Source: Nitrospira sp. (lineage in GTDB: Bacteria > Nitrospirota > Nitrospiria > Nitrospirales > Nitrospiraceae). Taken from it: 64,000 bases of DNA. The first letter of the stretch is position 1. The number at the start of each line of letters is the position of its first letter. The position numbers and the translations under genes are program-made. The stretch is from positions 496,001 through 560,000 of the forward strand of contig JARFXP010000003.1 in NCBI GenBank assembly GCA_029194675.1, given 5' to 3'. The notes below the pieces were generated by a model, which had not been told where the DNA came from, ran no database searches, and worked only from the letters and a program-made list of their open reading frames with translations. This document shows, piece by piece, positions 22,828-40,999 of the stretch.

Positions 22828-24428
22828 GGCTGTCTGCCCTCCGCCTCGGTACTCGTGAAGTCCGCTTCGCCGCCCGCATCGACGAGTCTGCCCGCATCGC
22901 CGACTCCGCGAGGCGTGCGAGGCGTGTGAAGCCCTTGGCTTAGGGTTGAAACCTGCTCAGAAGCCGGCGGCAAGACGCGAGCGATGACCTTCTCGACGCT
23001 TGGGTGCATGCGGGTCAGGATGGGGTTAGGGAACAACCCGATCGCAAAGATCAATACGACGAGCGGCACCAGGGTAACCGTCTCGCGCAGGTTGACATCA
23101 CGTAGTTTCGGAAGCATGTGCGGAGCCGGCACGCCGAATGCGACACGTTGAACCATCCAGAGCAAGTAGGCGGCGGCGAGGATGATTCCCAATGAGGCGA
23201 AGGCTGTGGCGATCTTGCTCCAGAGGAAGGTGCCTATCAGAACCATAAACTCCCCGACAAAACTGTTCGTGCCGGGCAATCCCAACGAAGACAATGCAAA
23301 AATGACCAGGAACGTCGCATACCGCGGCATGGGCCTAGTCAGCCCTATATTGTCCGCGATCTGGCGGCTGTGGGTGCGTTCGTAAATCACCCCCACGCAG
23401 AGAAAGAGCCCCCCGGTCGTGATCCCGTGATTTACCATCTGCATCACAGCGCCTTCGATTCCTTGAATGTTAAACATGAATAGGCCGAGCGTGACGAACC
23501 CCATGTGGCTCACGCTCGAATAGGCGATGAGCTTTTTCAGGTCGGCTTGGGCCAGCGCCATGTAGGCGCCATAGATGATGGCGATAATCGAGAGGACCAC
23601 CATCAAGGGCGTAAAGGTTTGGGATGCGTCCGGCAACATCGGCAAACTGAAGCGCACGAATCCATAGGCGCCCATCTTGAGCAGAACGCTGGCGAGAATC
23701 ACGCTGCCTGCCGTCGGCGCTTCTACGTGCGCATCGGGCAACCAGGTATGGAGAGGAAACATGGGAACCTTGACGGCGAATGCGGCGAAGAACGCGAGAA
23801 AGAGCCAGAACTGCATTGACTTGGAATAGGTGGCCTGACTCAATTGAAGAATGTCGAATGTATGGCCACCCTGAAAATACAACACCAAAATCGCGACCAG
23901 CAGCAAGACGCTGCCGGTGAAGGTATAGAGAAAGAATTTAATCGCGGCATAGAGTCGATTGGGTCCTCCCCAAACTCCTATCAGGAGGTACATGGGGATC
24001 AGCATCGCCTCCCAGAACACATAGAACAGTACGAAATCGAGAGCCGCGAACACTCCGATCATGGCGCCTTCCATGATCAGCAGCATGGCCATGAAGCTCT
24101 GGACTCTCGATTCGATGGAGTGCCAAGAAATCAGGACGCAGAGCGGCATCAGGACCGTCGTCATGAGGACCAACGGCAGACTGATGCCATCGAGACCCAG
24201 CCGATAATGAATCGGCGGCGACGAGATCCACAGGGCCGATTCCATGAACTGCATGTGGCTGGAGGAGGCATCGAACAACCACCAGAGCGGGAGTGAAATC
24301 AGTAAGTCAGCGACGGTGGCGGCGAGGGCGATGAGCCGAGCCGAGGAGTCCTTCACGAAAAAGACCGCAGCCGCTCCGATCAGCGGGAGACAGATCAGTG
24401 CCGTAAGCCAAGGAAAGGAATGTGTCAT
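22824..24428 (-). CDS. nuoM: NADH-quinone oxidoreductase subunit M
   Basis: 534 residues, antiporter-like subunit: FVLFYVFWEAMLIPMYLLIG carries the conserved Glu, KVPMFPLHTWLPDAHVEAPT the Lys region, and ADLKKLIAYSSVSHMGFVTL the second Lys. The last 40 residues (from about 495) are an unusual polar tail rich in Arg, Gly, Asp and Glu after the final helix, with sequence GLHTPRTPRGVGDAGRLVDA. This is not part of the usual NuoM and looks like a late sequence insertion. Confidence 0.95.
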   Translation of the reverse strand: MTHSFPWLTALICLPLIGAAAVFFVKDSSARLIALAATVADLLISLPLWWLFDASSSHMQFMESALWISSPPIHYRLGLDGISLPLVLMTTVLMPLCVLISWHSIESRVQSFMAMLLIMEGAMIGVFAALDFVLFYVFWEAMLIPMYLLIGVWGGPNRLYAAIKFFLYTFTGSVLLLVAILVLYFQGGHTFDILQLSQATYSKSMQFWLFLAFFAAFAVKVPMFPLHTWLPDAHVEAPTAGSVILASVLLKMGAYGFVRFSLPMLPDASQTFTPLMVVLSIIAIIYGAYMALAQADLKKLIAYSSVSHMGFVTLGLFMFNIQGIEGAVMQMVNHGITTGGLFLCVGVIYERTHSRQIADNIGLTRPMPRYATFLVIFALSSLGLPGTNSFVGEFMVLIGTFLWSKIATAFASLGIILAAAYLLWMVQRVAFGVPAPHMLPKLRDVNLRETVTLVPLVVLIFAIGLFPNPILTRMHPSVEKVIARVLPPASEQVSTLSQGLHTPRTPRGVGDAGRLVDAGGEADFTSTEAEGRQP

Positions 24429-24560: not shown

Positions 24561-26459
24561 CTAGGAAATCAGAAAGACCGTCATGATCACAACAATCCCG
24601 ACCGCCATCGCCAGCGCGTAATGCTGGGTCTGCCCGCTCTGGATCAGTCTCAATAACCATCCACCCCAGGCAACACCGCGCGCGACGCCGTTGACCGCTC
24701 CGTCGATGAGATTGACGTCGACCCGTTTCCAGAGCTCTGAAGCGGTCGTACATGTTGGTCTGACAAACAGCTGGTCGTAGGCTTCGTCGACATACCATTT
24801 ATTCAACGAGCCACGATACAGGCTGCCCAACTGTTTGGCCAAGCGCTCCGGGAGATCCGGGTTGAGCACATAGACGTAATAGGCGGCGGCAATGCCGATC
24901 AGACCCATCGCTGTCGCCGCAGCCATAATCATGAGCCCATCCGAGCCATGGTGAATAGCCGCTTCAGTTCCGGTTGAAAAGACCGGCTCCAGGAACGATG
25001 GGATGCCGAGATAACCGGTCAAAATACTGAAGAATGCCAGAATGATGAGCGGTGTGGTGATCGTTTGCGAGGGTTCATGGAGATGTTCCGCATGGTGCGG
25101 ATCAACATGGGACGTGCCCCAGAACGTCACGAACACGAGCCTGAAGCTGTAGAAGGCTGTCAGGAGAGCCGTCAGCAGCCCGAAGATCGCCAGTACCTGG
25201 CCAAGTGTACCCGACGACCAGGCGGACACGAGGATGTCATCCTTACTGAAGAATCCTGCCGTTAAAGGAAAGCCGGCGAGCGCCAGCGAACCGATCACAA
25301 ACGTCCAGTAGGTAATCGGTAACTTGTCTTTGAGGCCACCCATGTGTCGCATGTCCTGTTCATGATGCAGAGCGATAATGACAGAGCCACAGCCCAGGAA
25401 AAGCAAGGCTTTGAACGCGCCATGTGTCAATAAGTGATACATGCCGGAGGCGTAAGCTCCGAGCCCGCAAGCCATCATCATGTAACCGAGCTGACTGACC
25501 GTCGAATACGCGACCACACGTTTGATGTCGGTTTGAGTCAACGCAATCGTGGCGCCGAGGACCATCGTCGTCGCGCCTGTAATAGCGACCACGCTCATCG
25601 CGGTCGGAGAAAGGTTATAGATCGGGGCGAGACGTGCCACCATGAAGACGCCGGCTGTGACCATCGTAGCGGCATGAATGAGTGCCGAAATCGGCGTGGG
25701 CCCCTCCATCGCGTCAGGCAGCCAGACATGAAGCGGAACTTGGGCGGATTTGCCTACCGCACCGGTGAAGAGCAAGAGTGCGATAAGAGTAAAGACGGAA
25801 ACCTCCCAGGTTCCACCGAAAGGTCCGAGAAGGTTCATCGTGAGATCCTTCGCTTCGTGAGCGGCGGGGAAAATCTCGTGATAGTTGAGCGATCCGAAAC
25901 TGTACCAGACGAGCAGAAGGCCCAGCATGAACCCGAAATCGCCCACGCGATTCACCAAGAAAGCCTTGGTCGCAGCTGCACAGGCGGAAGCACGTTCGTA
26001 CCAATGGCCGATCAGCAGGTAGGAACACAGCCCCACGGCTTCCCAGAACACGAAGAGCTGCAGCAGGTTATCGGCCAAAACCAACATCAACATGGAAAAG
26101 GTGAACAGGGCGATGTAGCTGAAGAAACGGGCATAGCCCGGCTCGCCGTGCATGTAGCCGATCGTATAGACATGCACGAGCGAGCTGACACCGGTGACCA
26201 GCAAGAGCATCACGGCGGTCAGCCGGTCGATATGGAGACCGATGTGAATGTCGAGATTCCCGGATGTAAGCCAGGTATACAGCGGAACTGAAATGACGGA
26301 GCCGGAAGTCACTTCTAAAAAGGCCGCCACCGACAAGACGAGCGACAACACGACCGCCGGAACCGCGACAAGGTGGGCGCGGTCTTTAATGTGCCAGCCG
26401 GCCAGGCCTAAGATGAGAAAAGCGCCCAGCGGAAGAAGTGGGATGAGGGAATACAGCAT
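24561..26459 (-). CDS. nuoL: NADH-quinone oxidoreductase subunit L
   Basis: 632 residues, the largest antiporter-like subunit. Signature stretches: LLQLFVFWEAVGLCSYLLIG with the key Glu, KSAQVPLHVWLPDAMEGPTP with the Lys, TDIKRVVAYSTVSQLGYMMM, and FSKDDILVSAW. The C-terminal half includes the long lateral helix region and ends in a final helix near 610-632. It is separated from nuoK by a 93-bp repeat-bearing spacer. Confidence 0.96.
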   Translation of the reverse strand: MLYSLIPLLPLGAFLILGLAGWHIKDRAHLVAVPAVVLSLVLSVAAFLEVTSGSVISVPLYTWLTSGNLDIHIGLHIDRLTAVMLLLVTGVSSLVHVYTIGYMHGEPGYARFFSYIALFTFSMLMLVLADNLLQLFVFWEAVGLCSYLLIGHWYERASACAAATKAFLVNRVGDFGFMLGLLLVWYSFGSLNYHEIFPAAHEAKDLTMNLLGPFGGTWEVSVFTLIALLLFTGAVGKSAQVPLHVWLPDAMEGPTPISALIHAATMVTAGVFMVARLAPIYNLSPTAMSVVAITGATTMVLGATIALTQTDIKRVVAYSTVSQLGYMMMACGLGAYASGMYHLLTHGAFKALLFLGCGSVIIALHHEQDMRHMGGLKDKLPITYWTFVIGSLALAGFPLTAGFFSKDDILVSAWSSGTLGQVLAIFGLLTALLTAFYSFRLVFVTFWGTSHVDPHHAEHLHEPSQTITTPLIILAFFSILTGYLGIPSFLEPVFSTGTEAAIHHGSDGLMIMAAATAMGLIGIAAAYYVYVLNPDLPERLAKQLGSLYRGSLNKWYVDEAYDQLFVRPTCTTASELWKRVDVNLIDGAVNGVARGVAWGGWLLRLIQSGQTQHYALAMAVGIVVIMTVFLIS

Positions 26460-26552: not shown

Positions 26553-26855
26553 TTACCATTTCAACAGATTGAACTCTTCCACGTTGATCGTGGATCTGGA
26601 TCGGTGCAAGGCGATGATGATCGCAAGTCCGACTGCAACCTCCGCAGCCGCCACCGTCAAAGCAAAAAAAACGAACACTTGACCGCCAAGATCCTGAAGA
26701 TGGTCGGAAAACGCGACAAAGTTAATGTTGGTTGCATTCAGCATCAGCTCCACGGACAGCAGGATGACGATGATGTTGCGCCGGATGAGCACACCCACAA
26801 CGCCGGTCAGGAAGACGATGGCGCTCAAAATGAGGTAGTAAGAGATGGGAATCAT
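26553..26855 (-). CDS. nuoK: NADH-quinone oxidoreductase subunit K
   Basis: 100 residues from the ATG at 26855; an upstream in-frame extension to 26930 translates the repeat spacer and is rejected. Three membrane helices. The conserved Glu residues of the proton path lie in [18 protein letters not shown] and [20 protein letters not shown]. Length is exactly typical. Confidence 0.95.
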
Positions 26856-26954
26856 CCTTGCCTCGTGAAACGTAAAACGTGAAAAGTAAACGGTTGAGAG
26901 GAAAAGGCGGCAGCCGGCAGACTCTTCCATGAACGACCGTCTAACATTTCACTC
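26856..26954. repeat. Degenerate short-word repeat between nuoK and nuoJ
   Basis: The spacer holds GTGAAACGTAAAACGTGAAA followed by AGTAAACGG, tandem variants of GTGAAACGT, and further on TTTCACTCTCATATTTCACG, the complementary word. No gene. Confidence 0.45.
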
Positions 26955-27482
26955 TCATATTTCACGGCTTTCAGAAAAGTCTCGTTTCGCGAGGACGATG
27001 GCGCCGATCATGGCCACTAAGAGAACCAAAGAGGCCACCTCGAAGGGGAATAAATAGGTTGAAAAAAGCGTCTTACCGATGGCCAACGTATTGTCGGCGG
27101 CGATGGCATCATGCGGTCCGGACCGGAGCGATGGACTGTCCGGATCGGTCGATCCCGCTCCGCCGGAGAGCAGCACGATGGACTCGATCACCAACGGCAC
27201 ACAGACAACGGCGGCGACCCGCCATTGGCTGTGGTAACGGTCGTCTTGTTTGACATTGAGCAACATGACGACGAAGAGATACAGCACGAGAATGGCTCCC
27301 GCATAGACGATGACCTGCACGGCCGCGAGGAATTCGGCATGGAGTATGACGAAGAGCCCAGCCATATGGAACAACATAACCAGTAAGGAAAGCGCGCTGT
27401 AGACGGGGTTTCTCAGCGCGACCACCAGCATGGAAGTTATGGCGATTATCCCGGCGAAGTAACCAAAAAACATCTGGGCCAT
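26955..27482 (-). CDS. nuoJ: NADH-quinone oxidoreductase subunit J
   Basis: 175 residues, five membrane helices. Family features: RNPVYSALSLLVMLFHMAGL and the glycine-rich third helix VQVIVYAGAILVLYLFVVML, which forms part of the coupling site between the peripheral and membrane arms. The ending LVAMIGAIVLAKRDF is typical. A loop of about 50 residues rich in Ser, Asp and Gly (STDPDSPSLRSG) lies before the last helix. Confidence 0.94.
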   Translation of the reverse strand: MAQMFFGYFAGIIAITSMLVVALRNPVYSALSLLVMLFHMAGLFVILHAEFLAAVQVIVYAGAILVLYLFVVMLLNVKQDDRYHSQWRVAAVVCVPLVIESIVLLSGGAGSTDPDSPSLRSGPHDAIAADNTLAIGKTLFSTYLFPFEVASLVLLVAMIGAIVLAKRDFSESREI

Positions 27483-27572: not shown

Positions 27573-28139
27573 TCAGTCCGGTTTTGACGGCACGTGCTTG
27601 AATGCCACGTTGAAGAACGCGACGTTGGGATGCTGTAGCTCCAGGCGTTTCTCGCGGGTCGGGAATGAACGGTCGCCGATTGCGAGCAATTGCTGTTTGT
27701 TCAGGTGGAGTTGGCGCTTGTCGTATACCGCCCACTCAAATTCTCTCGTCATGCCCAGTGCATCGACAGGGCAGGCATCCACACACATCCCACAGAACAA
27801 GCAACGGGTCATGTCCATGTAATATTCTTTAGAGTAACGCTTCGTCGGCTCACCCGGCACTTCCGCGCTGACGACCCGGATAACGCGCGAGGGACAGGCT
27901 GCTTCACAGAGATCGCATCCCACGCACTTCTCGGTCCCATCGTCGTATCGGAGCAGCGCGAGCATGCCACGATAGTTGTCCGGCAGGGTGCGTTTTTCGT
28001 GAGGGTATTGCAAGGTCACCGGACGATAATTGAGCAGATGCGACAACGTCGCCTTCATGCCGACGAGGATCTCGTAGAACGTGATGGTCTTGAACCATTC
28101 GGACAGACTCAGACGCCTGGTGGTTGTCGTCGATGCCAT
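27573..28139 (-). CDS. nuoI: NADH-quinone oxidoreductase subunit I
   Basis: 188 residues. Two 4Fe-4S clusters (N6a, N6b) are bound by CVGCDLCEAACPSRVI near 75-90 and CLFCGMCVDACPVDAL near 115-130. These carry electrons from NuoG to NuoB. The N-terminus carries the amphipathic helix that lies on the membrane. It is 14 bp from nuoH and 90 bp from nuoJ. The protein sits at the interface of the hydrophilic arm. Confidence 0.96.
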   Translation of the reverse strand: MASTTTTRRLSLSEWFKTITFYEILVGMKATLSHLLNYRPVTLQYPHEKRTLPDNYRGMLALLRYDDGTEKCVGCDLCEAACPSRVIRVVSAEVPGEPTKRYSKEYYMDMTRCLFCGMCVDACPVDALGMTREFEWAVYDKRQLHLNKQQLLAIGDRSFPTREKRLELQHPNVAFFNVAFKHVPSKPD

Positions 28140-28153
28140 GGTGGTCCCGTACG

Positions 28154-29230
28154 CTACTTCATCTGTTGGTAGACGAATACTGCAATAGATGTCACGACAA
28201 TGTTACCCAATGCGATGGGCAGCATCACCTTCCAGCCGAACCTCATGAGCTGATCGTATCGCAGCCTTGGCAACGTGGCCCGGAGCCAGAAGAAGAGGAA
28301 CAAGAAGGAGTATGTCTTGACCGCAAACCACATGATGTTCTCGACCCAAGCCAAGGACGGCAAACCGATGAGCGCCAGAATCGTTCCAGGGTACGGTGCA
28401 TTCCATCCGCCGAGAAACAGGGCGGCGGCTACACAGGACACTAACATCATGTTGGCGTACTCGGCGAGGAAAAAGAACGCGAATCTGAGGCCGCTGTATT
28501 CAGTGAAGAAGCCGGCGACAAGCTCGCTCTCCGCTTCCGGCAGATCGAACGGGACACGATTGGTTTCGGCCACGACGGAGATCACGTAGACGACGAACGC
28601 AAAAATTTGCGGTGCCGGTAACGCGAAGAGGTACCAATTCCAAAAACCTCCGGCCTGGGCATCGGTGATTTTCACGAGGCTGAGCGAGCCGGCCAGAATC
28701 AACACCCCGACAATGGACAGTCCGACGTTGAGCTCGTAGCTGATGATCTGAGCAGCCGATCGTAGCCCGCCGAGCAAGGAGTATTTGCTGTTGGACGCCC
28801 ATCCTCCCAGGATGATGCCATAGGCACTGATCGAGGCGAAGGCTAAGATGTACAGAATGCCGATGTTGATGTCAGTGATGATGAACGGCTTCACGGTGAT
28901 GCCGCCGATCTCGAACGTCCAGTTCGGGCCCCAAGGAATAACCGCGAATCCGATGAATGTCGGAATCAAACAAAGAATCGGCGCCATGGTGAAGAGGAAC
29001 TTGTTGGCACCGGCGGGGACAATGTCTTCCTTGAAAAACAGCTTGATGGCGTCCGCAAACGGTTGGAGAATGCCGTAGGGCCCCACCTCCATCGGACCCA
29101 TGCGGTCCTGCATCCAGCCCAGGACTTTGCGTTCCGCAAGAGTGAGGATGAGGACTGTGATGACCACGATGCCCATGACCGCGGCGATCTGCGTAAGGGA
29201 GATGGCGAGACGCAATCCGAATTCAGTCAC
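28154..29230 (-). CDS. nuoH: NADH-quinone oxidoreductase subunit H
   Basis: 358 residues, eight membrane helices, forming the quinone chamber with NuoB and NuoD. Recognised by ERKVLGWMQDRMGPMEVGPY, then GILQPFADAIKLFFKEDI, and NRVPFDLPEAESELVAGFFT with the conserved acidic loop EYSGLRFAFFFLAEY. Nothing unusual. Confidence 0.96.
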   Translation of the reverse strand: MTEFGLRLAISLTQIAAVMGIVVITVLILTLAERKVLGWMQDRMGPMEVGPYGILQPFADAIKLFFKEDIVPAGANKFLFTMAPILCLIPTFIGFAVIPWGPNWTFEIGGITVKPFIITDINIGILYILAFASISAYGIILGGWASNSKYSLLGGLRSAAQIISYELNVGLSIVGVLILAGSLSLVKITDAQAGGFWNWYLFALPAPQIFAFVVYVISVVAETNRVPFDLPEAESELVAGFFTEYSGLRFAFFFLAEYANMMLVSCVAAALFLGGWNAPYPGTILALIGLPSLAWVENIMWFAVKTYSFLFLFFWLRATLPRLRYDQLMRFGWKVMLPIALGNIVVTSIAVFVYQQMK

Positions 29231-29276: not shown

Positions 29277-31943
29277 TCACGCCACCTTCATGATAGACAC
29301 CGTCGCTGTCCGAAACGACGGCGCTTGGGTGATCGGATCGATGGCGCATTCAAACAGTTGGACGGCAGCTTGACCAAAGTGATACGGGAACCATGCCGTT
29401 CCTTGTGGGATCCGCTCCATAATCTTGACCTCGGTCGTCATTTCCCCTGACGTGCTGGAGAGGCGGACCCGATCCCCATCCGACAAGGCAAAGCGTGCCG
29501 CGTCAGGTGGACTGATACGCAACCGGCCACTCCCTTCCACCTGTAACAGCCCTTTGGAGCGAGTGGATAACTTTCCGGAATGGAACAGGCTTTGACCTAG
29601 ATCCAACCGCAGGGTTCCATCCGGCCTGGATTTCGGCGTCATGATCCGGTATCGCGTCGCAAGATCACGCTGATACCCCTCGGCGAGATAGTGATCTATG
29701 GCGGTACGGTCGACCTTTTGAGGCGACGGTGTGGGCCCCAGTGAGCCGTAGCCAGGAATAAGGCCCCGGATTTCCTTGAGGATCTCTTTGCTTTCGGCAT
29801 ACTCCATGGGTGAGTTCAACAGGATGGAAAGCGCAGAAAAGACTTCCCAGTCGGGGCGGCTTTCTCCGACAGGTTCGATCGACGGACGAACGGCCTGAAC
29901 ATGTCCCTCGGTATTGGTAAACGTCCCCTGTTTTTCCATCGAAGAGGCGGCCGGCAACACGACGTGGGCCAAGGCGGCCGTCTCGGTTAAAAACAGTTCC
30001 TGGCACACCAAGAGATCGAGGTTGCGCAGTGATTGCTCGGCATGTATCGTCGCGGGGAGACTTCCGACAGGATTCTCTCCGACGATGAACATCGCCTTGA
30101 GGGATCCCTCGTTGGCTCGCTTCAACATCTCGATGAGGGACGCTCCTCTGTCGGTCGGAAGTTCGGCTTTCCATTGCGTCGCGATCCTCTCGCGATCCGT
30201 GCTGTCGGCGAGGAGGCCGGCACCGGGAAGAAATTCAGTGACGGTTCCCATTTCGACCGCGCCCTGGTCGTTGTTTTCTTCGGCAAGCGGCGAAAAACCA
30301 CAGCCGGGCTGATCCAACTTTCCTGTCAGAAGCAGCAGATCGAGGAGGGTCACACATCCGCTGTAACCATGTTCGCTCCGCAGCAAGAGCTGTCCAGCCA
30401 AGATGACGACCCGGCGTGCTCCTGCCGCCACCTTGGCCGCCCTCATAAAAGAATCCGGCTCAATTCCGGTCGCCGCCTGTAGGTCCCGCCAAGAGGTCTG
30501 TTGCAGCGCGCTCGTAATGGCGTCGACATATGCCGGCTGCCGTTGTGCGAGCTCCGGCTGTATCAAATTCTGTTCTACGACGCCCTTCACCAGACCCAGG
30601 ATGGCGTTCTGCATCTCGCTGGGTGGGAGACAGAAGTGATGCTCAGAGAGGTTAGCGATATTACTGATCGTGTCGACGACCGGCTCCAGCGATTCGATCG
30701 TCATCAGTGTCGCCCGCCGTTTCTTCACCGCCTCTTTGACCTTGAGGCCCGTGATGGGATTCGTCTCGGTGATATTCGTGCCGACGAGGATCAGGACATC
30801 CGCATCCAGGATGTCGTCGAAGGTCACGGTCCACCGATGCGTCCCCTGCACGAGTTGCATGGCATGCAGGCCGTTGATATGACCGTAGCGCGCGCTGCTG
30901 TCGATGTTGTTGGTGCCGACGGCCAGGCGCATAAATTTCTGAAAGAGGTACAGTTCCTCGTTGGTGCAGCGGCCCGAGATCAATCCTCCGAAACTCTGTC
31001 CTCCGTGAGCGGCTTTAATCTCGCCGACGCGGGCGGCGACGTACTCCAGCGCTTCTTCCCACGTCGCCCGCACAAGCACGCCATCGCGACGAATGAGCGG
31101 ATGCGTCAGACGATCCGGATGGCCGGCTGCATGGAACCCAAAAAATCCCCGAGCGCACAGGTCGCCGTTGTTGCGGCCCGCTCCATGCGCGGAGTTCACT
31201 TCAATGAGTTCCTGCCCCTTCGTCTGCACGGTGATCTGGCACCCATCTCCGCAGTAACCACAGATAGTGTCGGCTCGTTTCAGCATCCATGGCCGATACT
31301 CATACATGGACAGTCGGCTGGTAATCGCTCCAACCGGACAGATTTGCACACAGCCGCCGCAGAACTCGCAATTCAGAGGATGGGCGCCGAAGTACTTGAT
31401 TTCCGTCATCGTGCCGCGACCGACCGGCGCCAGCGCCTTGACGTCCATCACTTCGTCGCAGTATCGGACACAGCGCAGACACTGCACGCAACGATTCATC
31501 TGCGTTTCGATCAGCGGACTGAAATATTCCTTTTGGAAGATGCGCTTGGTTTCAACGAACCGGCTGGACGCCGTGTACTGGTGCGAAAAGTCTTGAAGGT
31601 CGCACTTGCCCCCTTGATCGCAGACCGGACAGTCCAGCGGATGATTGGCAAGGATAAACTCGAGCACCGATTTATGGGCGTCGTCGACCACGGTGGTAGC
31701 GGTGCGTATGTTCATCCCTTCGTCGGCCGGTGTGCTGCAGGCCGTTTGAAGCTTGGGCATCTTTTCGATTTCAACCAGGCACATACGGCAATTGGCGTCC
31801 GGTTTGAGCTTCGGATGGTAGCAGAAATGTGGAATCATGACGCCGACGCGACGGGCTGCTTCGATCACCAACGTCCCCTTCGGGACGTGGACCGTCATTC
31901 CGTCGATCGTGACGTGAACCATCTGGGGTGTAGTCTCGGTCAT
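29277..31943 (-). CDS. nuoG: NADH-quinone oxidoreductase subunit G
   Basis: 888 residues. N-terminal 2Fe-2S domain (HFCYHPKLKPDANCRMC, ACSTPADEGM), then a His/Cys 4Fe-4S site (HPLDCPVCDQGGKCDLQ), two clusters in NRCVQCLRCVRYC and CEFCGGCVQICPVGA, and a further Cys set CGYCGDGC at the start of the molybdopterin-oxidoreductase domain. That last set is the extra N7-type cluster present in only some bacteria. The molybdopterin domain (from about 230) is structural in complex I. The length fits NuoG with the full C-terminal domain. Confidence 0.94.
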   Translation of the reverse strand: MTETTPQMVHVTIDGMTVHVPKGTLVIEAARRVGVMIPHFCYHPKLKPDANCRMCLVEIEKMPKLQTACSTPADEGMNIRTATTVVDDAHKSVLEFILANHPLDCPVCDQGGKCDLQDFSHQYTASSRFVETKRIFQKEYFSPLIETQMNRCVQCLRCVRYCDEVMDVKALAPVGRGTMTEIKYFGAHPLNCEFCGGCVQICPVGAITSRLSMYEYRPWMLKRADTICGYCGDGCQITVQTKGQELIEVNSAHGAGRNNGDLCARGFFGFHAAGHPDRLTHPLIRRDGVLVRATWEEALEYVAARVGEIKAAHGGQSFGGLISGRCTNEELYLFQKFMRLAVGTNNIDSSARYGHINGLHAMQLVQGTHRWTVTFDDILDADVLILVGTNITETNPITGLKVKEAVKKRRATLMTIESLEPVVDTISNIANLSEHHFCLPPSEMQNAILGLVKGVVEQNLIQPELAQRQPAYVDAITSALQQTSWRDLQAATGIEPDSFMRAAKVAAGARRVVILAGQLLLRSEHGYSGCVTLLDLLLLTGKLDQPGCGFSPLAEENNDQGAVEMGTVTEFLPGAGLLADSTDRERIATQWKAELPTDRGASLIEMLKRANEGSLKAMFIVGENPVGSLPATIHAEQSLRNLDLLVCQELFLTETAALAHVVLPAASSMEKQGTFTNTEGHVQAVRPSIEPVGESRPDWEVFSALSILLNSPMEYAESKEILKEIRGLIPGYGSLGPTPSPQKVDRTAIDHYLAEGYQRDLATRYRIMTPKSRPDGTLRLDLGQSLFHSGKLSTRSKGLLQVEGSGRLRISPPDAARFALSDGDRVRLSSTSGEMTTEVKIMERIPQGTAWFPYHFGQAAVQLFECAIDPITQAPSFRTATVSIMKVA

Positions 31944-32000: not shown

Positions 32001-33308
32001 TTAACGTCTTAGTCCCACCGGCTCGGGTCGGATCAAATTCGCCGTCTCCGCTTCGTTGATGAGGTCGACATACTCCTGCCGCCAATGATTCAGCGTACTT
32101 TGAATCGGAGCGACTTCCGCGTCACCGAAGGCACAGACCGTTCGGCCTGCGATGTTTTTGCATAGATCCGACAAGGTTTCAAGATCCTCCATCCGGCCAC
32201 GCTTCGCTAAGATTCTGCGCAGAGTCTGTACGAGCCAAGAACTGCCCTCTCGACAGGGGGTACATTTCCCACAGGACTCATGGTAGAAAAATTCCATCAG
32301 CCGAAGGGCGGCCCAGACCATGCTGGTGCCTTCCTCCATGACCGTCACGCCGCCGGACCCCAGCATCGATCCCGCCGCCGCAACGTGTTCAAAATCCAAC
32401 TTGACGTCCAGATGGGCCGGAGTCAGAAACGGCGCAGACGCTCCACCGGGAATGAATGCTTTGATCGGCTTATCCGAACGCATGCCGCCGGCATGTTCGT
32501 AGACCAACTCGCGGACCGTCACCCCCATCGGAACTTCATAATTACCTGGTCGTTTCACATGCCCGCTGACGCAGAAGACTCTGGTGCCGGTGCTCTTCGG
32601 CGGCGAGCCGATTGCGGCAAACCATTCGGGGCCTCGGTTGATGATATGGGGGAGGTTCGCCAGCGTCTCGACGTTATTGACCACGGTCGGCTTGTTGTAG
32701 AGGCCATGCGTGGCTGGAAACGGAGGCTTGATGCGAGGGAGCCCGCGTTTGCCTTCGAGCGATTCCAAGAGGGCTGTTTCCTCGCCGCAGATATAGGCCC
32801 CCGCTCCCCGATGCACCCACACGTCTGCGTTGATGCCGGTGCCGAGAATGTTCTTTCCGATATACCCGGCGGCTCTTGCTTCGCCGATGGCCTGTTCCAA
32901 AATCCTCGAGCCCAGCACCATTTCCCCGCGGATGTAGATGTAGGCGGTTTCCGCACCGATGGCATAGCAGGCCAACACGATGCCTTCCAATACTTGATGG
33001 GGGTCTCGCTCCATGAGTTGACGATCCTTAAACGTACCGGGCTCGCTCTCATCGGCATTGCAGCACAGATAACGGGGGCCTTGATAATCTTTCGGCAGAA
33101 ATCCCCATTTCACACCGGTCGGGAAGCCTGCGCCGCCTCGGCCGCGTAATCCGGACTGGCGGACCATCGCCGTCACATCCGGCGGGCCGATTTTCCCGAG
33201 CGTGTTGCGCAAGGCTTGATAGCCACCGGCCTGCTCATAATCCGTCAGCGACCCGGTATATCCAGGGTGCATCATATTCTTCAGAAGGACGAGTTCGTGC
33301 TTGGGCAT
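32001..33308 (-). CDS. nuoF: NADH-quinone oxidoreductase subunit F
   Basis: 435 residues. It binds NADH and FMN: GLRGRGGAGFPTGVKWGF near 50-67 and NADESEPGTFKDRQLMERDP near 85-105, GAGAYICGEETALLESLEGK near 175. The N3 4Fe-4S cluster ligands are in ESCGKCTPCREG near 350 plus a later Cys. It oxidises NADH and passes electrons to NuoG; its partner NuoE is encoded 12 bp upstream. Confidence 0.96.
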   Translation of the reverse strand: MPKHELVLLKNMMHPGYTGSLTDYEQAGGYQALRNTLGKIGPPDVTAMVRQSGLRGRGGAGFPTGVKWGFLPKDYQGPRYLCCNADESEPGTFKDRQLMERDPHQVLEGIVLACYAIGAETAYIYIRGEMVLGSRILEQAIGEARAAGYIGKNILGTGINADVWVHRGAGAYICGEETALLESLEGKRGLPRIKPPFPATHGLYNKPTVVNNVETLANLPHIINRGPEWFAAIGSPPKSTGTRVFCVSGHVKRPGNYEVPMGVTVRELVYEHAGGMRSDKPIKAFIPGGASAPFLTPAHLDVKLDFEHVAAAGSMLGSGGVTVMEEGTSMVWAALRLMEFFYHESCGKCTPCREGSSWLVQTLRRILAKRGRMEDLETLSDLCKNIAGRTVCAFGDAEVAPIQSTLNHWRQEYVDLINEAETANLIRPEPVGLRR

Positions 33309-33897: not shown

Positions 33898-35649
33898 TCA
33901 TCTATCGCACTCCCCCATGACGACGTCGTATGTGCCGAAAATCGTGATGATGTCGGAGATCAAGTATCCACGCGCCATATGGTCGAACGCACCCATATGA
34001 ATGAACGAGGGCGAGCGAATTTTCAATCGATAAGGGCGTGGAGATCCATCACTAATGATAAAAAATCCCAGTTCCCCCTTGGGCGCTTCGGTCGCGCAAT
34101 AGGTTTCCCCCTTCGGCGGCTTGAACCCTTGGGTGAAGATGATGAAATGATGGATCAAGCTCTCCATGTCGCGCATGACTTGCTGCTTGGGCGGAGGAAT
34201 GTATTGCGGCATATCGGCGATGATCGGCCCGGGCGGCATCTGATCGAGACATTGTGAAATGATCCGGGCGCTCTGACGCATCTCTTCAACGCGAATCCAA
34301 TAGCGATCGTAGGTGTCGCCGTTTTTCCCGACCGGCACTTCCCAGTCCACCTTATTGTAAACCCCATAGGGTTCGAGTTTGCGGACGTCATAGGCCACCC
34401 CGGATCCCCGTAACGCGGGGCCGGTCATGCCGAAATTGATCGCATCTTCCCCGGAGATGACGGCGACATGTTTCGTCCGCCCCAACCAAATCCGGTTGCC
34501 TGCGAGCAGCGAATCATACTCGTTGACCTTCTCCGGAAACGTTTCCAAGAATGTTTTGAGGCGGGTGATCAATTCGGGAGTGAAGTCGCTGTCCACGCCG
34601 CCGATCCGATAGTAATTCAAGGTCAGCCTGGCTCCACACAGCCGTTCGAACATATCGAGCAAGGTTTCCCGCTCGCGAAAGGTCCAGAAGAAGATCGTCA
34701 TGGCTCCGATATCCAGCGCCTGAGCACCCAACCAGAACAGATGTCCCAGAATGCGCTGCATCTCCGCGACGATGGTGCGAATATACTCGGCTCGTTCAGG
34801 CACGGTGATTCCGATGAGCTTCTCAACGGCGCGCACATAGGCATAATTATTGGCCATCGCGCAGACATAGTCGAGCCGGTCGGTATGGGGAATGATCTGC
34901 ATGTAGGCGAGACCCTCAGCCAATTTCTCGACGCCTCGATGGAGGTACCCCAGATCCGGCGTCGCCTTGACGATCCTCTCTCCATCCAGTTCGAGAACGA
35001 CTCGGACCACGCCGTGCGTGCTCGGATGTTGTGGGCCCATATTCAGCAACAGTTCTTCCCGCCGGTTCGATGAGGACCCGGTCGGCTCGGAAAGGAACAA
35101 CTTCTTCTCAGCCTCGGGAACCTCGCCTTCGATGTGGTCGACCGGCGGTTCATCGAGGCGCGGGATAAAGTCGAACTGACTCCGCCACCCTCGGCCCTCC
35201 GCCGGGAAGTCCTTCCGCAACGGATACCCTTCCGCATAGTCTTCCGGAAGGAGGATGCGGCGTAGGTCCGGATGCCCTGAAAACCGGATTCCCATCATGT
35301 CGTAGACTTCGCGTTCCAAGAATGTCGCGCCGCGCCAGATGCTTGTTACTGAATCCAGCGACGGGTTGTCTTCGGTGACCCGCGTTTTCAGGCGAATCCG
35401 CCTGCCGTGCGGGAGCGACAACAAGAGATAGATGACCTCAAACCGCTGCTGATCGACCGGATAGTCGGCGGAGCAGATATCGGTGATATGGTCGAAACAA
35501 GCCTCCTGGTCATCGTGCAAAAAACGAGCGACCTCCAAGATCCTCGGCGCAGCGACATGAATGGTCACTTCCGATCGCGCCGTGTCGACATCGATGGAAA
35601 GCACAGCCGCCGGGAACTTTTTGAGCAATGTTTCAGTGAGGGATTGCAT
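33898..35649 (-). CDS. nuoCD: NADH-quinone oxidoreductase fused subunits C and D
   Basis: 583 residues from the ATG at 35649; a 14-codon extension to 35691 is possible but reads spacer sequence. The NuoC part (1 to about 190) has YLLLSLPHGRRIRLKTRVTE, EREVYDMMGIRFSGHPDLRR and ILLPEDYAEGYPLRKDFP. After a linker the NuoD part begins with LNMGPQHPSTHGVVRVVLEL. It includes the quinone-site His of that HPSTHG loop and ends RSPSFIHMGAFDHMARGYLI. Fusion of C and D is known in several lineages. Together with NuoB and NuoH it forms the quinone pocket. Confidence 0.95.
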   Translation of the reverse strand: MQSLTETLLKKFPAAVLSIDVDTARSEVTIHVAAPRILEVARFLHDDQEACFDHITDICSADYPVDQQRFEVIYLLLSLPHGRRIRLKTRVTEDNPSLDSVTSIWRGATFLEREVYDMMGIRFSGHPDLRRILLPEDYAEGYPLRKDFPAEGRGWRSQFDFIPRLDEPPVDHIEGEVPEAEKKLFLSEPTGSSSNRREELLLNMGPQHPSTHGVVRVVLELDGERIVKATPDLGYLHRGVEKLAEGLAYMQIIPHTDRLDYVCAMANNYAYVRAVEKLIGITVPERAEYIRTIVAEMQRILGHLFWLGAQALDIGAMTIFFWTFRERETLLDMFERLCGARLTLNYYRIGGVDSDFTPELITRLKTFLETFPEKVNEYDSLLAGNRIWLGRTKHVAVISGEDAINFGMTGPALRGSGVAYDVRKLEPYGVYNKVDWEVPVGKNGDTYDRYWIRVEEMRQSARIISQCLDQMPPGPIIADMPQYIPPPKQQVMRDMESLIHHFIIFTQGFKPPKGETYCATEAPKGELGFFIISDGSPRPYRLKIRSPSFIHMGAFDHMARGYLISDIITIFGTYDVVMGECDR

Positions 35650-35767: not shown

Positions 35768-36247
35768 CTATTTCACGAATACTCTCTCTCGCTGGATCTT
35801 TTCCTGTAACTTCAACAGTCCGTCCAGTAAGGCTTCCGGTCTCGGCGGGCAACCGGGCACATAGACATCAACCGGCACGATCTGATCCACACCCTGGACG
35901 ACCGCATAGCTGTTGTAGTGATTGCCGGATGTCGCGCACGAGCCCATGCACATTACATATCGAGGCTCAGGCATTTGGTCGTAGATCCGTCGAATGACCG
36001 GCGCCATCTTGCGAGAAACCGTTCCCGCGACAATCATGAGGTCAGATTGCCTGGGGGATGCGCGAAAGACACCGGCGCCGAAGCGGTCCAGGTCATAACG
36101 GGAGGAGACGCTGGCGATCATTTCAATGGCGCAGCAGGCCAGCCCAAAAGTCATGGGCCACAGTGCCGACTTCCTCGCCCAGTTGACGACCGCGTCCAGA
36201 TTCGTCGTCACGATATTCGCGTCAAACTGTCGCTCAAGTAAACTCAT
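35768..36247 (-). CDS. nuoB: NADH-quinone oxidoreductase subunit B
   Basis: 159 residues from the ATG at 36247; the open frame continues upstream to 36445, but that part is spacer-like. The N2 cluster ligands are seen in [12 protein letters not shown] (adjacent Cys pair), [11 protein letters not shown] and [16 protein letters not shown]2 passes electrons to quinone. A purine-rich AAAGAGG lies directly before the start. Confidence 0.95.
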
Positions 36248-36383: not shown

Positions 36384-36755
36384 TCAGTCCCATTCGAGCG
36401 CTCCTTTCTTCCATGCGTACCAGAACCCAACCACGAGGATAGCAATGAACAGGACCATCTCCACTAATCCAACCAGCCCAAGACTGTTGAATGCAACCGC
36501 CCACGGGTAGAGAAAGACCACCTCGACATCGAAGATGACGAACAACATCGCGATGATGTAGTACCGCATCGGAAACTGTACCCGAGCATCCTGGAAGAGC
36601 GGACTTCCGCTTTCATACGGGGCCAGCTTTGCCCGATAGGGCTGGTTCGGACGGACAAACTTCCCGAGCAAGAGAATCAGCGTTCCGAGCGCGATACCCA
36701 CCCCGATAAAAATGAGGATCGGGAGATAGTTTTCCGGTACGGGTGAATCGCCCAT
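36384..36755 (-). CDS. nuoA: NADH-quinone oxidoreductase subunit A
   Basis: 123 residues from the ATG at 36755, with TGAGG six bases upstream; an extended frame to 36812 would run into the methyltransferase. Three membrane helices, with the family motif [20 protein letters not shown] containing the acidic loop and then [20 protein letters not shown]. It is the first structural gene of the operon and is followed by a 136-bp spacer before nuoB. Confidence 0.95.
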
Positions 36756-36808
36756 ATAAACCTCAGAACAGGTGACCGAACGTCGGTGCCGCCGCCATCC
36801 GAAATTCC

Positions 36809-38029
36809 TCACGCAGCTGATTGCGTTGTGAGCGCGGAACCAAAGAACGGTTTGTACTGCAAACCGTCGAGTTCAGGCTGCCGGATTCCCTTGTGTTGGA
36901 TGAGGACCTTGAACGTCGTGCCCATCCCGTTTGGTCTCAGCAGATGAATCGCCTCTTTGAACTGCGGGCCGTCCTGCTCCAATTCCGCTATCATTTGCTC
37001 GACGCCGAGTCCCATGAGAAAACTCATCTGGTTCGTGAAGCCGGTCGTCTGGAGTTTCCACCCTTCACCGGCCGCCGCCAAGCTCGAAAAATCCACATGG
37101 GCTGTCATGTCCTGTTCGCCCACGCGCACAAACGGGTCTTCGTTTATCGTTTGTTGGAAATAGCAAAGGAACGTGCCGTGTTTTCTGTCGGATCGATAGA
37201 GGTCCTGTGCCGTGTGGCCGTAATCGATGGTGAGCACGAAGCCACGATCCAGATGCTGAGCGACTTGCTTCATCCAATCCGATGCGCGGAGATTGATCTC
37301 GGTTCGATAGCCTTCCGGCCAATCGGCGCTCACGCGGTGAAGCCGCTGGGCCAGTCTGTCCGACGACAGCGGCATCAGACATTCAACGAATCTCCCGTCT
37401 CGATAATCCACCCAGAGTTCCTCGATTCCCTTTGCCGTGACCTCAATGCGGTGGACCGGAAACGAGTCCACGAGTTCATTGCTGAAGAACAGACCGGTCA
37501 GACCTTGAGGGGCCACAGTCTCTAGGTCGTTCACCCATGTCAGTAGGGCTGCTCGATCCAACCAAGGAGCCAGGTTCCTGCGCTGCAACTCACGCATGGC
37601 CGGGCTTCGGTCTATCAGGACATACCGAAGATGCTGAAAAAGCGAATGATAGCGATGCGCGCATGTCGTCAAGACGTGGTTCGCCAGCAAACCTTTGCCG
37701 GGCCCCATCTCAACGATGGTAAAGGGATGGGGTTGACCGAGTAATCGGTACATCTGTTCGGCTTGTTTGGCCAGAGCTTGCCCAAGGATAGGATGGACAT
37801 CTGAACTCGTGTAAAAATCACCCCGCCGGCCGATCCGTTCTTGCTTTGGTTCAGGGCTACGCATGTAATAGCCGAATTGCGGGTGATAGAGAGCCAACTC
37901 CATGAAACGAACAAACGGAATCGGGCCGGAAGCGGCGATCTCAGCGGCAATGGCAGCAACGAGTTCCGGATGGCCTAAGCTCACGGAAAGCTCCAATTCT
38001 TCACCTTCCAAGACGGAAAAAAGCGACAC
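36809..38029 (-). CDS. MidA/NDUFAF7-type SAM-dependent methyltransferase
   Basis: 406 residues of the DUF185 family. N-terminal hallmark GPIPFVRFMELALYHPQFGY then YYMRSPEP and GDFYTSSDVHPILGQALAKQ; SAM motif I is TIVEMGPGKGLLANHVL near 105-121; later FFSNELVDSFPVHRIEV and VLTIDYGHTAQDLYR. The mitochondrial member NDUFAF7 methylates an arginine of the NuoD-homologous subunit NDUFS2 during complex I assembly. Here the gene lies 53 bp upstream of nuoA on the same strand, so a role in assembling this complex I is a good inference. Confidence 0.85.
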   Translation of the reverse strand: MSLFSVLEGEELELSVSLGHPELVAAIAAEIAASGPIPFVRFMELALYHPQFGYYMRSPEPKQERIGRRGDFYTSSDVHPILGQALAKQAEQMYRLLGQPHPFTIVEMGPGKGLLANHVLTTCAHRYHSLFQHLRYVLIDRSPAMRELQRRNLAPWLDRAALLTWVNDLETVAPQGLTGLFFSNELVDSFPVHRIEVTAKGIEELWVDYRDGRFVECLMPLSSDRLAQRLHRVSADWPEGYRTEINLRASDWMKQVAQHLDRGFVLTIDYGHTAQDLYRSDRKHGTFLCYFQQTINEDPFVRVGEQDMTAHVDFSSLAAAGEGWKLQTTGFTNQMSFLMGLGVEQMIAELEQDGPQFKEAIHLLRPNGMGTTFKVLIQHKGIRQPELDGLQYKPFFGSALTTQSAA

Positions 38030-38275
38030 CCCGAGCCTGTGGGCAGCGCCTGCCCATCGCTGGGTGCTGAAGGGGGGGCTAGAGTAGCCTTCTGAAGTGC
38101 GTTAAGTCAAGACGAGGTCAGGGAGAATGGGTTGGTACGTTCCTCTGCGCGTACGTACGAGTTTTAGATCTTTGCTTCGCTCGCCAAAAGGAACGCCAAC
38201 CGTTCTTGCCGAGGCACTGCGGCTGGCCCAAAGGATTGTGAGCAACACATCGCACTCCTCCACCGAGCACTCTCT

Positions 38276-40999
38276 TCACGCCCCGTGGCACTTTTTGTAT
38301 TTTTTCCCGCTGCCGCAAGGGCATGGATCATTGCGGCCGACCTTGTTTTCGGCTCGGTGGACGGGAGCCGGCGCAGCCGCCGGCTCGTCGCCACGATTCA
38401 AGGTGAGCCTGGGCTGCGGACGCGAGATGACCGGTTGCGGTGAGTGCGCCGGTTGTTCTCCTTCGTGGCGGACCGCCTGCACATGAAACAGTCGATCGAG
38501 CGTATCGGATTTGATTCGTTCCATCATGCCGGCGAAGAGGTCAAACCCTTCACGTTTATACTCAATCAGTGGATCTTTCTGTCCGTAGCCGCGGAGACCG
38601 ATACCGTCGCGCAGGTGGTCCATCGCAAGCAGATGATCCTTCCAATGATGATCGATCACCTGGAGCATGAACGTCTTCTCAAGAAAACGCATCAGGTCTG
38701 AGCTTAGTTCTTGTTCTTTTCTAGTATAGGCGTCCCGCACGTGGGCTCGAAGGTCTTCCTGTAATGCGTCACGTCCGACGTCGCGCAGCGAGTCTCCCCC
38801 GTCGTGCTTACCCTGGGTGATATCCAACCCGAACTGACTCTGCATGACCTCAGTTAAACCTTTGACGTCCCATTCCTCAGGGTATTGATCGGGGGGACAA
38901 TACACATTGAGGGACGATTCCACGGAACCGGCCATCATGTCATGAAGGTCATTGGTGAGGTTGTCTCCGTTCAGCACGGCCCGGCGATGTCGATAGATCA
39001 CTTCGCGCTGCTTGTTCATGACGTCGTCGTATTCAAGCAGCTGTTTGCGGATTTCAAAGTTATGCGCTTCAACTTTCTTTTGGGCGTTCGCGATCGCGCG
39101 AGTCACCATCCCGTGTTCGATGGGGATGCCTTCCTCCATGCCGAGCTTGAGCATCAGCTGTGACACCCGTTCCGAAGCGAAGATCCGCATCAGGTCGTCT
39201 TCCAACGATAGGTAGAATCTCGATGTTCCTGGATCGCCCTGGCGGCCTGCCCGTCCTCGGAGCTGGTTGTCGATGCGGCGGCTCTCGTGTCGTTCCGTAC
39301 CGAGGATATGGAGGCCGCCGGCCGCGAGGACTTCCTGCTTGTTCTTGTCGCAATCGGATCTGATGCCCTCATAGATTTCAAGCTTGCGGTTCTCCGGGAG
39401 GTTCTCTTCCCGATAGAGCACTTGCTTGTACATGAAGTCCGGATTGCCGCCTAATAGAATATCGGTGCCTCGACCCGCCATGTTCGTGGCAATGGTGACC
39501 GCGCCTTTACCGCCGGCTTGCGCGACGATTTCGGCTTCGCGTTCGTGCTGCTTGGCGTTGAGGACGTTGTGCTTGACCCCGTTGCGATTCAAGAGTCCGG
39601 CGAGTCTCTCCGACTTTTCGATCGAAATGGTTCCGACCAATACCGGCTGTCCGCGCTCATGGCATTCTTTGATCTCTTCGACGATCGCTGCGAACTTTTC
39701 CTTCTCGGTTCGATACACGACGTCGGCATAATCTTGCCGAATCATTTGGCGGTTGGTCGGCACGACGTTGACGTCGAGGTTATAGATCTTGGCGAATTCG
39801 GCGGCTTCCGTGTCCGCTGTACCGGTCATGCCGCTCAGTTTCTTGTACATGCGGAAGTAATTTTGAAAGGTCACCGACGCGAGCGTCTGATTCTCGTTGG
39901 CGATCTTCACGCCCTCTTTGGCCTCGACGGCTTGATGCAGCCCGTCGCTCCACCGCCGACCCGGCATTAAGCGGCCGGTAAATTCATCCACGATGATGAC
40001 TTCGCCATCCTTTACGACGTAGTCCACGTCTCGTTTATAGAGCGTGTAGGCTTGCAAGGCTTTCACCACGTGATGGACCATGTCCATGTGGGCCGGATCG
40101 TACAGATTGTCGACGCCGAGAAGTTTTTCAACGCGCGCGTTGCCGTCTTCGGTGAGCGCAGCGGTTTTGGTCTTTTCTTCGATGGTGTAGTCCGCCTCGG
40201 CTTTGAGTTGCGGAATGATCGCGTTGATTCGGTAATAGAGGTCGGTGGTCTGGTCGGTCGGGCCTGAGATGATCAACGGCGTCCGCGCTTCATCGATCAA
40301 AATGCTGTCGACTTCGTCGACGATGGCGAAGTTCAACTCGCGTTGGACGCATTGATTCAAGTCGGTGACCACGAGGTTGTCGCGGAGATAGTCGAACCCA
40401 TATTCGTTGTTGGTGCCGTAGGTGATGTCGGCGCGATACGCCTCAGGTCTTGTGCAAGGGCGAAGGTGTTGCAGTCGCTTATCGGACGCATCGTAGGTTG
40501 GGTCATAGATGAACGACGCGTCGTGTTGAATGATGCCGGTGGATAGACCCAACGCATGGTAGAGCTGCCCCATCCACTGGGCGTCACGCTTGGCGAGATA
40601 ATCGTTGACGGTGACGAGATGGGCGCCTTTACCTTCGAGCGCATTCAGATAGATGGGGAGCGTTGCCACCAAGGTCTTCCCTTCACCGGTTTTCATTTCA
40701 GCGATGCGGCCACGGTGGAGAATCATCCCGCCGATCAGTTGCACGTCGAAATGCCGCATGTTGAGCTTGCGCCGGGACATTTCTCGGCACACGGCAAACG
40801 CTTCGGGCAAGATGTCGTCCAGCGTCTGACCTGCTTCAAGCCGCTTCTTGAAGTCCTGTGTCTTGTCCGCAAGGGCTTGATCGGAGAGCGGCGTGAGTCC
40901 GGCCTCCAAGCCGTTGATCTGCTCCACGATCGGCCGGAGGGTCTTGATTTCGCGGTCGTTTTTACTGCCGAAGATCAGATTGAGTACTTGCGTGACCAT
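38276..40999 (-). CDS. secA: Preprotein translocase ATPase SecA
   Basis: 907 residues, the usual size. Walker A is [14 protein letters not shown] near 100-115, Walker B-like [13 protein letters not shown] near 210, and the helicase-type closing motif [10 protein letters not shown] near 635. The C-terminus has the zinc-binding [17 protein letters not shown] (C-x-C-x8-C-H), preceded by a Pro/Ala-rich linker; this tail contacts SecB and ribosomes. Drives export through SecYEG. It is transcribed alone. Confidence 0.97.

What the first reader, a model, noticed from the sequence alone, without database searches (positions are those of the whole stretch)
36384..38029. Complex I methyltransferase gene heads the nuo operon
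A MidA/NDUFAF7-type gene lies 53 bp before nuoA. The eukaryotic family member methylates an arginine in the NuoD homologue. Gene placement here offers direct genomic support that the bacterial family also serves complex I.
Basis: partly seen in the sequence, partly recalled or inferred. Interest (0 to 1): 0.52.

Follow-up and report, generated by a model that had tools for sequence, protein, structure and literature searches.

The report
Methyltransferase gene heads complex I operon
In this bacterium the gene for a relative of the human enzyme that methylates respiratory complex I sits right before the complex I genes, and a survey of other bacteria suggests that the two evolve together, so the bacterial enzyme probably does the same job.

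Summary
On the minus strand a 406-codon MidA/NDUFAF7-family gene (PF02636) ends 53 bp before nuoA, which starts a complete nuoA-B-CD-E-F-G-H-I-J-K-L-M-N run. A survey supports the interpretation and extends it. (1) In the window's class, midA lies directly upstream of nuo in 64 of 68 genomes with both places listed. (2) It is not nuo-linked in other Nitrospirota (0 of 51 loci), but 19 of 81 Chloroflexota genomes have it within 15 kb of nuoD (about 0.6 expected), in several arrangements and on separate branches of the MidA tree. (3) All 88 MidA-bearing Chloroflexota genomes have a NuoD with the target motif LHR[G/S]; of 67 examined genomes without one, none has MidA. Those 67 carry LHTG (the known swap of the Arg to NuoB), 39 of them with an extra LHRN copy. 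The converse fails: many LHRG genomes lack MidA. Best reading: MidA dimethylates NuoD Arg (window residue 237) during complex I maturation. No methylation was measured. The family's role and the arginine swap were known; the recurrent linkage and the MidA-motif rule were not in the papers I could see.

The parts
36809..38029 (-). midA: PF02636 SAM-dependent methyltransferase, MidA/NDUFAF7 family, 406 aa (GTG start)
36756..36808 (-). 53-bp gap between midA and nuoA
36384..36755 (-). nuoA (PF00507), 123 aa
35768..36247 (-). nuoB; Thr codon at 36020-36022 is the partner site of the known NuoD-Arg/NuoB-Arg swap
33898..35646 (-). nuoCD (fused NuoC and NuoD), 582 aa; proposed substrate
34936..34938 (-). 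CGA codon of NuoCD Arg237 in GYLHRGVEK, the position of NDUFS2 Arg85; proposed methylation site
   Evidence: position equivalence from the HRGXE motif in PMC8042128
33321..33872 (-). nuoE
32001..33308 (-). nuoF
29277..31943 (-). nuoG
28154..29230 (-). nuoH
27573..28139 (-). nuoI
26955..27482 (-). nuoJ
   Evidence: read from the translation; finds nuoJ-position genes in other nuo runs
26553..26930 (-). nuoK
24561..26459 (-). nuoL
   Evidence: read from the translation
22824..24428 (-). nuoM
21361..22827 (-). nuoN
   Evidence: read from the translation
38276..40999 (-). secA, 246 bp upstream of midA on the same strand; flank, not part of the proposed system

Best explanation
midA is the leading gene of this nuo cluster and encodes the bacterial counterpart of NDUFAF7. 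Its product uses S-adenosylmethionine to dimethylate (by homology, symmetrically) the arginine of the LHRG motif of newly made NuoD, here residue 237 of the fused NuoCD, before or while NuoD docks with NuoB. The modified side chain then lies beside cluster N2 and the quinone site. Placing midA before nuoA would make enzyme and substrate together. Shown: gene identity, order, recurrence of linkage, co-distribution with the LHR[G/S] motif. Inferred: catalysis, the residue, co-transcription, the effect on assembly.
For: Homology: PF02636 full length; aligns to the Dictyostelium arginine methyltransferase 5ztz through the SAM loop (query ivemgpgkg, target ivemgpgrg) and the acidic loop (query snelvdsfpvh, target aqeffdalpih). 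Family function: NDUFAF7 is needed for symmetric dimethylation of NDUFS2 Arg85 (PMC3829151, abstract and passages). Paracoccus denitrificans NuoD Arg65 is symmetrically dimethylated, while the E. coli arginine is not (PMC3750175, abstract and passages); E. coli is among the control genomes where PF02636 does not ring. Linkage: 29 of 29 loci L003-L031; 64 of 68 genomes of the class; Chloroflexota 19 of 81 within 15 kb, with midA right before nuoA in L216-L220, L224 and L231-L233; separate clades. Co-distribution: of 50 genomes from many phyla, 16 of 28 whose retrieved NuoD has R have MidA, against 3 of 22 with T, and those 3 carry a second LHRG NuoD. Chloroflexota: 88 of 88 MidA genomes have an LHR[G/S] NuoD; 0 of 67 examined genomes without one have MidA.
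Against: No biochemical data for Nitrospirota or Chloroflexota. The motif occurs without MidA: 17 of 21 MidA-less Nitrospirota, 28 LHRG and 1 LHRS Chloroflexota genomes, 12 of 28 R-type genomes. In 5 of 174 MidA-bearing Nitrospirota genomes the motif pattern was not found (G071, G106, G131, G133, G221; unresolved). Linkage is absent in 51 of 51 other-family Nitrospirota loci and in 62 of 81 Chloroflexota genomes (fragmented assemblies lower this count). The statistics are not corrected for shared ancestry. The LHR[G/S] rule was refined after the fact, when LHRS and LHRN copies were seen. Wolbachia MidA was reported, as preliminary, to methylate DNA (PMC12455994, passages).
Confidence: 0.85

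Rival explanations
1. The adjacency is inherited gene order with no functional meaning: midA happened to land between secA and nuoA in an ancestor of this class and stayed.
For: secA and nuoA are neighbours in some Nitrospirota without midA between them (L107, L116, L117), so midA is an insertion into, or was lost from, an older junction. Most other Nitrospirota have MidA elsewhere (0 of 51).
Against: Linkage recurs in Chloroflexota next to nuo clusters with another gene order and on other MidA branches; order is kept in the class although midA proteins fall to 41-48% identity; the motif co-distribution is independent of position.
Confidence: 0.06
2. MidA serves complex I but not by methylating this arginine: it acts as a NuoD/NuoB assembly chaperone, or modifies another residue.
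For: Human and Dictyostelium MidA bind NDUFS2 directly (PMC9006661, passages). Position and co-distribution cannot tell binding from catalysis.
Against: The SAM loop is intact; a methylase-dead Dictyostelium mutant does not rescue (PMC9006661, passages); co-distribution follows this very site and its next residue.
Confidence: 0.06
3. Bacterial MidA mainly methylates other things, DNA for instance, and the nuo link is secondary.
For: PMC12455994 (abstract and passages) reports 166 methylated bases in E. coli expressing Wolbachia MidA and calls the result preliminary. Many LHRG complex I genomes lack MidA.
Against: A DNA methylase would not be expected to sit repeatedly beside nuo or to be missing wherever NuoD lacks HR[G/S].
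Confidence: 0.03

Closest known systems
NDUFAF7 / Dictyostelium MidA (mitochondrial complex I assembly factor)
   Same: Same Pfam family over the whole domain; shared SAM loop and acidic loop; same target motif in the substrate subunit (HRGXE, PMC8042128).
   Different: Here encoded directly before nuoA in a bacterial operon, with a fused NuoCD as substrate; activity untested.
Paracoccus denitrificans complex I with dimethylated Nqo4/NuoD Arg65 (PMC3750175)
   Same: A bacterial NuoD modified at the same motif position.
   Different: Modification measured there, enzyme not identified in the passages read; here the enzyme gene is seen and the modification is not measured.
NuoD-Arg / NuoB-Arg swap (Thermus against bovine or Yarrowia; PMC5552823, PMC8042128)
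   Same: The window has the Yarrowia-like state: NuoD Arg, NuoB Thr.
   Different: The papers treat the swap structurally; the link to MidA presence or absence is what this survey adds.
Wolbachia MidA proposed as DNA methylase (PMC12455994)
   Same: Same named family in a bacterium.
   Different: Proposed substrate is DNA; no nuo association is reported in the passages read.

Membership tests
MidA/NDUFAF7 (PF02636) | Full-length PF02636 domain | tested here: met
   Profile 2-248 of 249, 220.8 bits, cut-off 23.3
MidA/NDUFAF7 (PF02636) | SAM-binding glycine loop and the following acidic NE..D...P loop of the solved members | tested here: met
   Alignments to 4f3n, 1zkd and 5ztz; the roles of the loops are recalled, not from a call
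MidA/NDUFAF7 (PF02636) | Substrate arginine present in NuoD | tested here: met
   GYLHRGVEK, Arg237
MidA/NDUFAF7 (PF02636) | Protein-arginine symmetric dimethylation of NuoD | not testable with these tools
   Needs mass spectrometry
MidA/NDUFAF7 (PF02636) | Required for complex I assembly or activity | not testable with these tools
   Needs a deletion strain
MidA/NDUFAF7 (PF02636) | Orthology to the eukaryotic enzyme rather than family membership only | not tested
   The tree holds no eukaryotic rows
Type I NADH dehydrogenase (complex I, 14-subunit) | All core subunits in one run | tested here: met
   A, CD, E, F, G, H, I, K, M by library search; B, J, L, N by reading and by matching nuo runs elsewhere
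Thr-type complex I (Thermus-like swap) | NuoD Thr with NuoB Arg | tested here: not met
   The window has NuoD Arg and NuoB Thr

The most novel reading that the evidence does not exclude
A two-part rule governs bacterial complex I maturation: MidA is kept only where a NuoD carries HR-G/S (the methylated form), and is dispensable where the arginine has moved to NuoB (NuoD LHTG) or where it is followed by Asn (LHRN). Lineages would thus have at least two evolutionary ways out of MidA dependence, and nuo-midA linkage arose repeatedly to couple enzyme and substrate supply.
Probability: 0.5. Interest if true: 0.72.

Novelty: new member of a known kind. Interest (0 to 1): 0.6.

Why it matters
The role of MidA in prokaryotes is described as only inferred in silico, and a DNA-methylation role has been proposed (PMC12455994). 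Recurrent placement beside nuo, and absence of MidA where NuoD lacks the HR[G/S] site, point to NuoD as the ancestral substrate and name organisms and a single peptide in which to test it. It would place this arginine methylation, needed for human complex I assembly, as an ancient bacterial maturation step, and explain why some bacterial model complexes (E. coli, Thermus) lack it.

Tried and rejected
Rejected as a rule: 'Arg present means MidA present'. f16 and other Nitrospirota, E. coli, and Dehalococcoidia-like small Chloroflexota genomes (that label is recalled from genome size and is not tested) have Arg without MidA.

Corrected on the way: the first Chloroflexota count (81 of 109 LHRG genomes against 5 of 73 LHTG-only; Fisher p 5e-21) treated the LHTG-only genomes as lacking any arginine. 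Follow-up showed that all 10 exception genomes (5 LHTG-only and 2 with neither pattern in Chloroflexota, 3 acidobacterial) carry a second NuoD with LHRG or LHRS, and that 40 of the 68 LHTG-only genomes without MidA also have a second NuoD with Arg, 39 as LHRN and 1 as LHRS (G325). Hence the rule is about LHR[G/S], found after the fact. The 17 MidA-less genomes with neither pattern were not examined further and are left out of the 0 of 67. Eight pattern rows were dropped before the count because they read GYVHRG, GYLHSG or GFYHRG. Two weak PF02636 matches (G239, G256; E above 1e-6) were not counted as MidA.

Led nowhere: search for DUF185 with nuo found DUF1852, an unrelated family; COG1565 with NADH gave one unrelated paper; MidA with 'nuo operon' gave none; NDUFAF7 with NuoD and arginine methylation gave none; NDUFAF7 with gene neighbourhood gave none. 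Two Nitrospira papers on nuo operons contain no 'methyltransferase' (passages). The key paper by Shahul Hameed et al. 2018 is not held, so what it says about operons is unknown to me. Only 50 of the 80 loci were scanned for MidA genome-wide. Structure prediction was not run: sequence homology to solved members sufficed.

Full report
What is there. The window lies in a 5.2-Mb genome (G000:C3:496001-560000) of the Nitrospira kind: the nearest named relatives by NuoD, L115, L113 and L114, are a Nitrospirae bacterium, a Nitrospira sp. and a Nitrospiraceae bacterium. On the minus strand, in order of reading, are secA (38276-40999), midA (36809-38029), nuoA (36384-36755), nuoB, a fused nuoCD, and nuoE to nuoN down to 21361. 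Gaps: secA-midA 246 bp, midA-nuoA 53 bp. The genome has four further nuoA matches, one of them at a contig end; only this cluster has midA. A 2M-type cluster (L101; the relatives' form with two nuoM is seen in L120-L124) also has LHRG, while two others have HHRG and HHRA.

Identity. The 406-aa product matches PF02636 over the whole profile and three solved relatives, among them the Dictyostelium protein arginine methyltransferase. NCBIfam has no matching model.

Linkage in the phylum. In 29 of 29 best-match relatives' loci (L003-L031) midA is followed by nuoA on the same strand. Using MidA places and motif places, 64 of 68 genomes of the window's class with both rows listed have midA upstream of nuoD on the same strand within 4 kb; the four others are two split over contigs (G056, where L011 does show nuoA adjacent, and G124), one at 7.9 kb (G175) and one unlinked as far as seen (G228); 13 further genomes had no motif row listed. 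In the class, families f5, f6, f8 and f10 are linked, f9 lies about 5 kb off, and the loci of f7 and f11 show no nuoA. In f12, three of four loci have midA 4 to 5 kb upstream of nuoA; the fourth ends at a contig end. In the remaining families, 0 of 51 loci (L036-L083, L098-L100) show nuoA in the stretch held, up to 8 kb each side; neighbours there include nadA twice in the ten proteins scanned.

Linkage elsewhere. A NuoD-based scan of named genomes returned 80 loci from many phyla. MidA lies in 5 of them (L112, L113, L114, L119, L140), always right before nuoA, and all 5 are Nitrospirota by title. In a Chloroflexota sample (201 genomes around G240, whose locus L142 is titled Thermomicrobium) 88 have MidA at E of 1e-15 or better. 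Of the 81 that also show the LHRG pattern, 19 have the two within 15 kb, against about 0.6 expected for random placement in a 4-Mb genome. midA is directly before nuoA in L216-L220, L224 and L231-L233, a little farther in L221 and L222, at the other end of the cluster in L225-L227, and on the opposite strand in L223 and L228-L230. The gene order there (A, B, C, D, H, F, G) differs from the window's. In the MidA tree the Chloroflexota rows and the Nitrospiria rows fall on opposite sides of a starred branch (95/92), and the three Chloroflexota arrangements fall in different groups. That favours several independent origins of the linkage; ancestral linkage with many losses is not excluded. Most unlinked Chloroflexota cases are in fragmented assemblies, so 19 is a lower bound.

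The target site. NuoD carries GYLHRGVEK; the arginine corresponds to NDUFS2 Arg85 (HRGXE motif; PMC8042128, passages). Over 80 loci the residue is R in 52 and T in 28 (one of the two search patterns contained HR, so R is favoured by selection). Where NuoB and NuoD could be paired, NuoD R goes with NuoB T in 79 pairs, NuoD T with NuoB R in 16, NuoD R with NuoB W in 1, and two hydrogenase-like pairs have K with P. The swap is known (PMC5552823 and PMC8042128, passages); this is a wider confirmation.

MidA follows the site. Of 50 genomes, 16 of 28 whose retrieved NuoD has R and 3 of 22 with T have MidA. All 3 of the latter have a second NuoD with LHRG. In Chloroflexota, the pattern searches gave MidA in 81 of 109 genomes with LHRG, 5 of 73 with LHTG only and 2 of 19 with neither. 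The 5 and the 2 all have a second NuoD reading LHRS. So all 88 MidA genomes have an LHR[G/S] NuoD. The 68 LHTG-only genomes without MidA were searched for further NuoD copies: 40 second copies were fetched and read, 39 LHRN and 1 LHRS; the other 28 showed no second full NuoD match in the listing, which was cut. In 12 of these second clusters that I examined with flanks, 11 LHRN and 1 LHRS, NuoB has T. Counting LHR[G/S]: 88 of 117 genomes with it have MidA, 0 of 67 without. The 17 MidA-less genomes with neither pattern were not examined. These counts are not corrected for kinship, and the [G/S] refinement was made after seeing the data.

Against. In Nitrospirota the motif does not separate the groups: 169 of 174 MidA genomes and 17 of 21 MidA-less genomes match the pattern (one of the 21, G226, is inferred as the unlisted one). 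That pattern also accepts A, C, S or T after the arginine and V, I or M before the histidine. The 5 MidA genomes without it are unresolved. So MidA is not needed for every LHRG complex I, as E. coli also shows: its arginine is unmodified (PMC3750175) and PF02636 does not ring in it, while PF00507 does. The same controls show PF00507 but not PF02636 in Thermus composti and Deinobacterium.

Reading. The most likely mechanism is that of NDUFAF7: SAM-dependent symmetric dimethylation of the NuoD arginine during assembly of the NuoB-NuoD module near cluster N2 (PMC3829151, PMC9006661, PMC8042128; abstracts and passages). Shown here: family, order, recurrence, co-distribution. Inferred: catalysis, site, timing, co-transcription. 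A second PF02636 product with another role is not excluded in genomes with paralogues.

What is known. PMC9006661 states that bioinformatic and structural evidence indicates NDUFS2 methylation by alphaproteobacterial homologues. PMC12455994 says that the prokaryotic function has only been inferred in silico and proposes DNA methylation for Wolbachia MidA. Searches for the nuo linkage or for the MidA-motif rule found no paper (open-licence library only).

Noticed in passing
L107, L116, L117; window 36384-40999: secA and nuoA are neighbours in several Nitrospirota with midA between them and in others without it, so midA was inserted into or lost from an older secA-nuoA junction.
   Followed up: partly
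L002 (G000:C4:470085-470459) and similar places in most relatives: A second, roughly 480-aa protein with a weak PF02636 match (20 to 42 bits) is present in nearly all genomes of the order sampled; its identity was not determined.
   Followed up: no
G042, G045, G048, G052, G055, G058: Family f3 genera carry an additional strong PF02636 paralogue (134 to 168 bits) away from nuo.
   Followed up: no
L037 8938-15923, L039 458-7443: In family f15 midA lies tail to tail with a group-4-hydrogenase-like cluster whose NuoD homologue has Lys at the site (GYVHKG) and NuoB Pro.
   Followed up: no
L264-L303: Second complex I clusters of many Chloroflexota have NuoD LHRN instead of LHRG, keep NuoB Thr where examined, and come without MidA: a third state of this site, not described in the papers read.
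   Followed up: partly
L101, L102, L103 (G000): The window's genome has several complex I clusters with different site motifs: LHRG, HHRG and HHRA.
   Followed up: partly
window 36846-36868: A nine-pair stem-loop followed by a T-rich tail lies at the 3' end of the midA coding region on the minus strand; terminator-like sites are only slightly above chance here (4 found, 2.4 expected).
   Followed up: no
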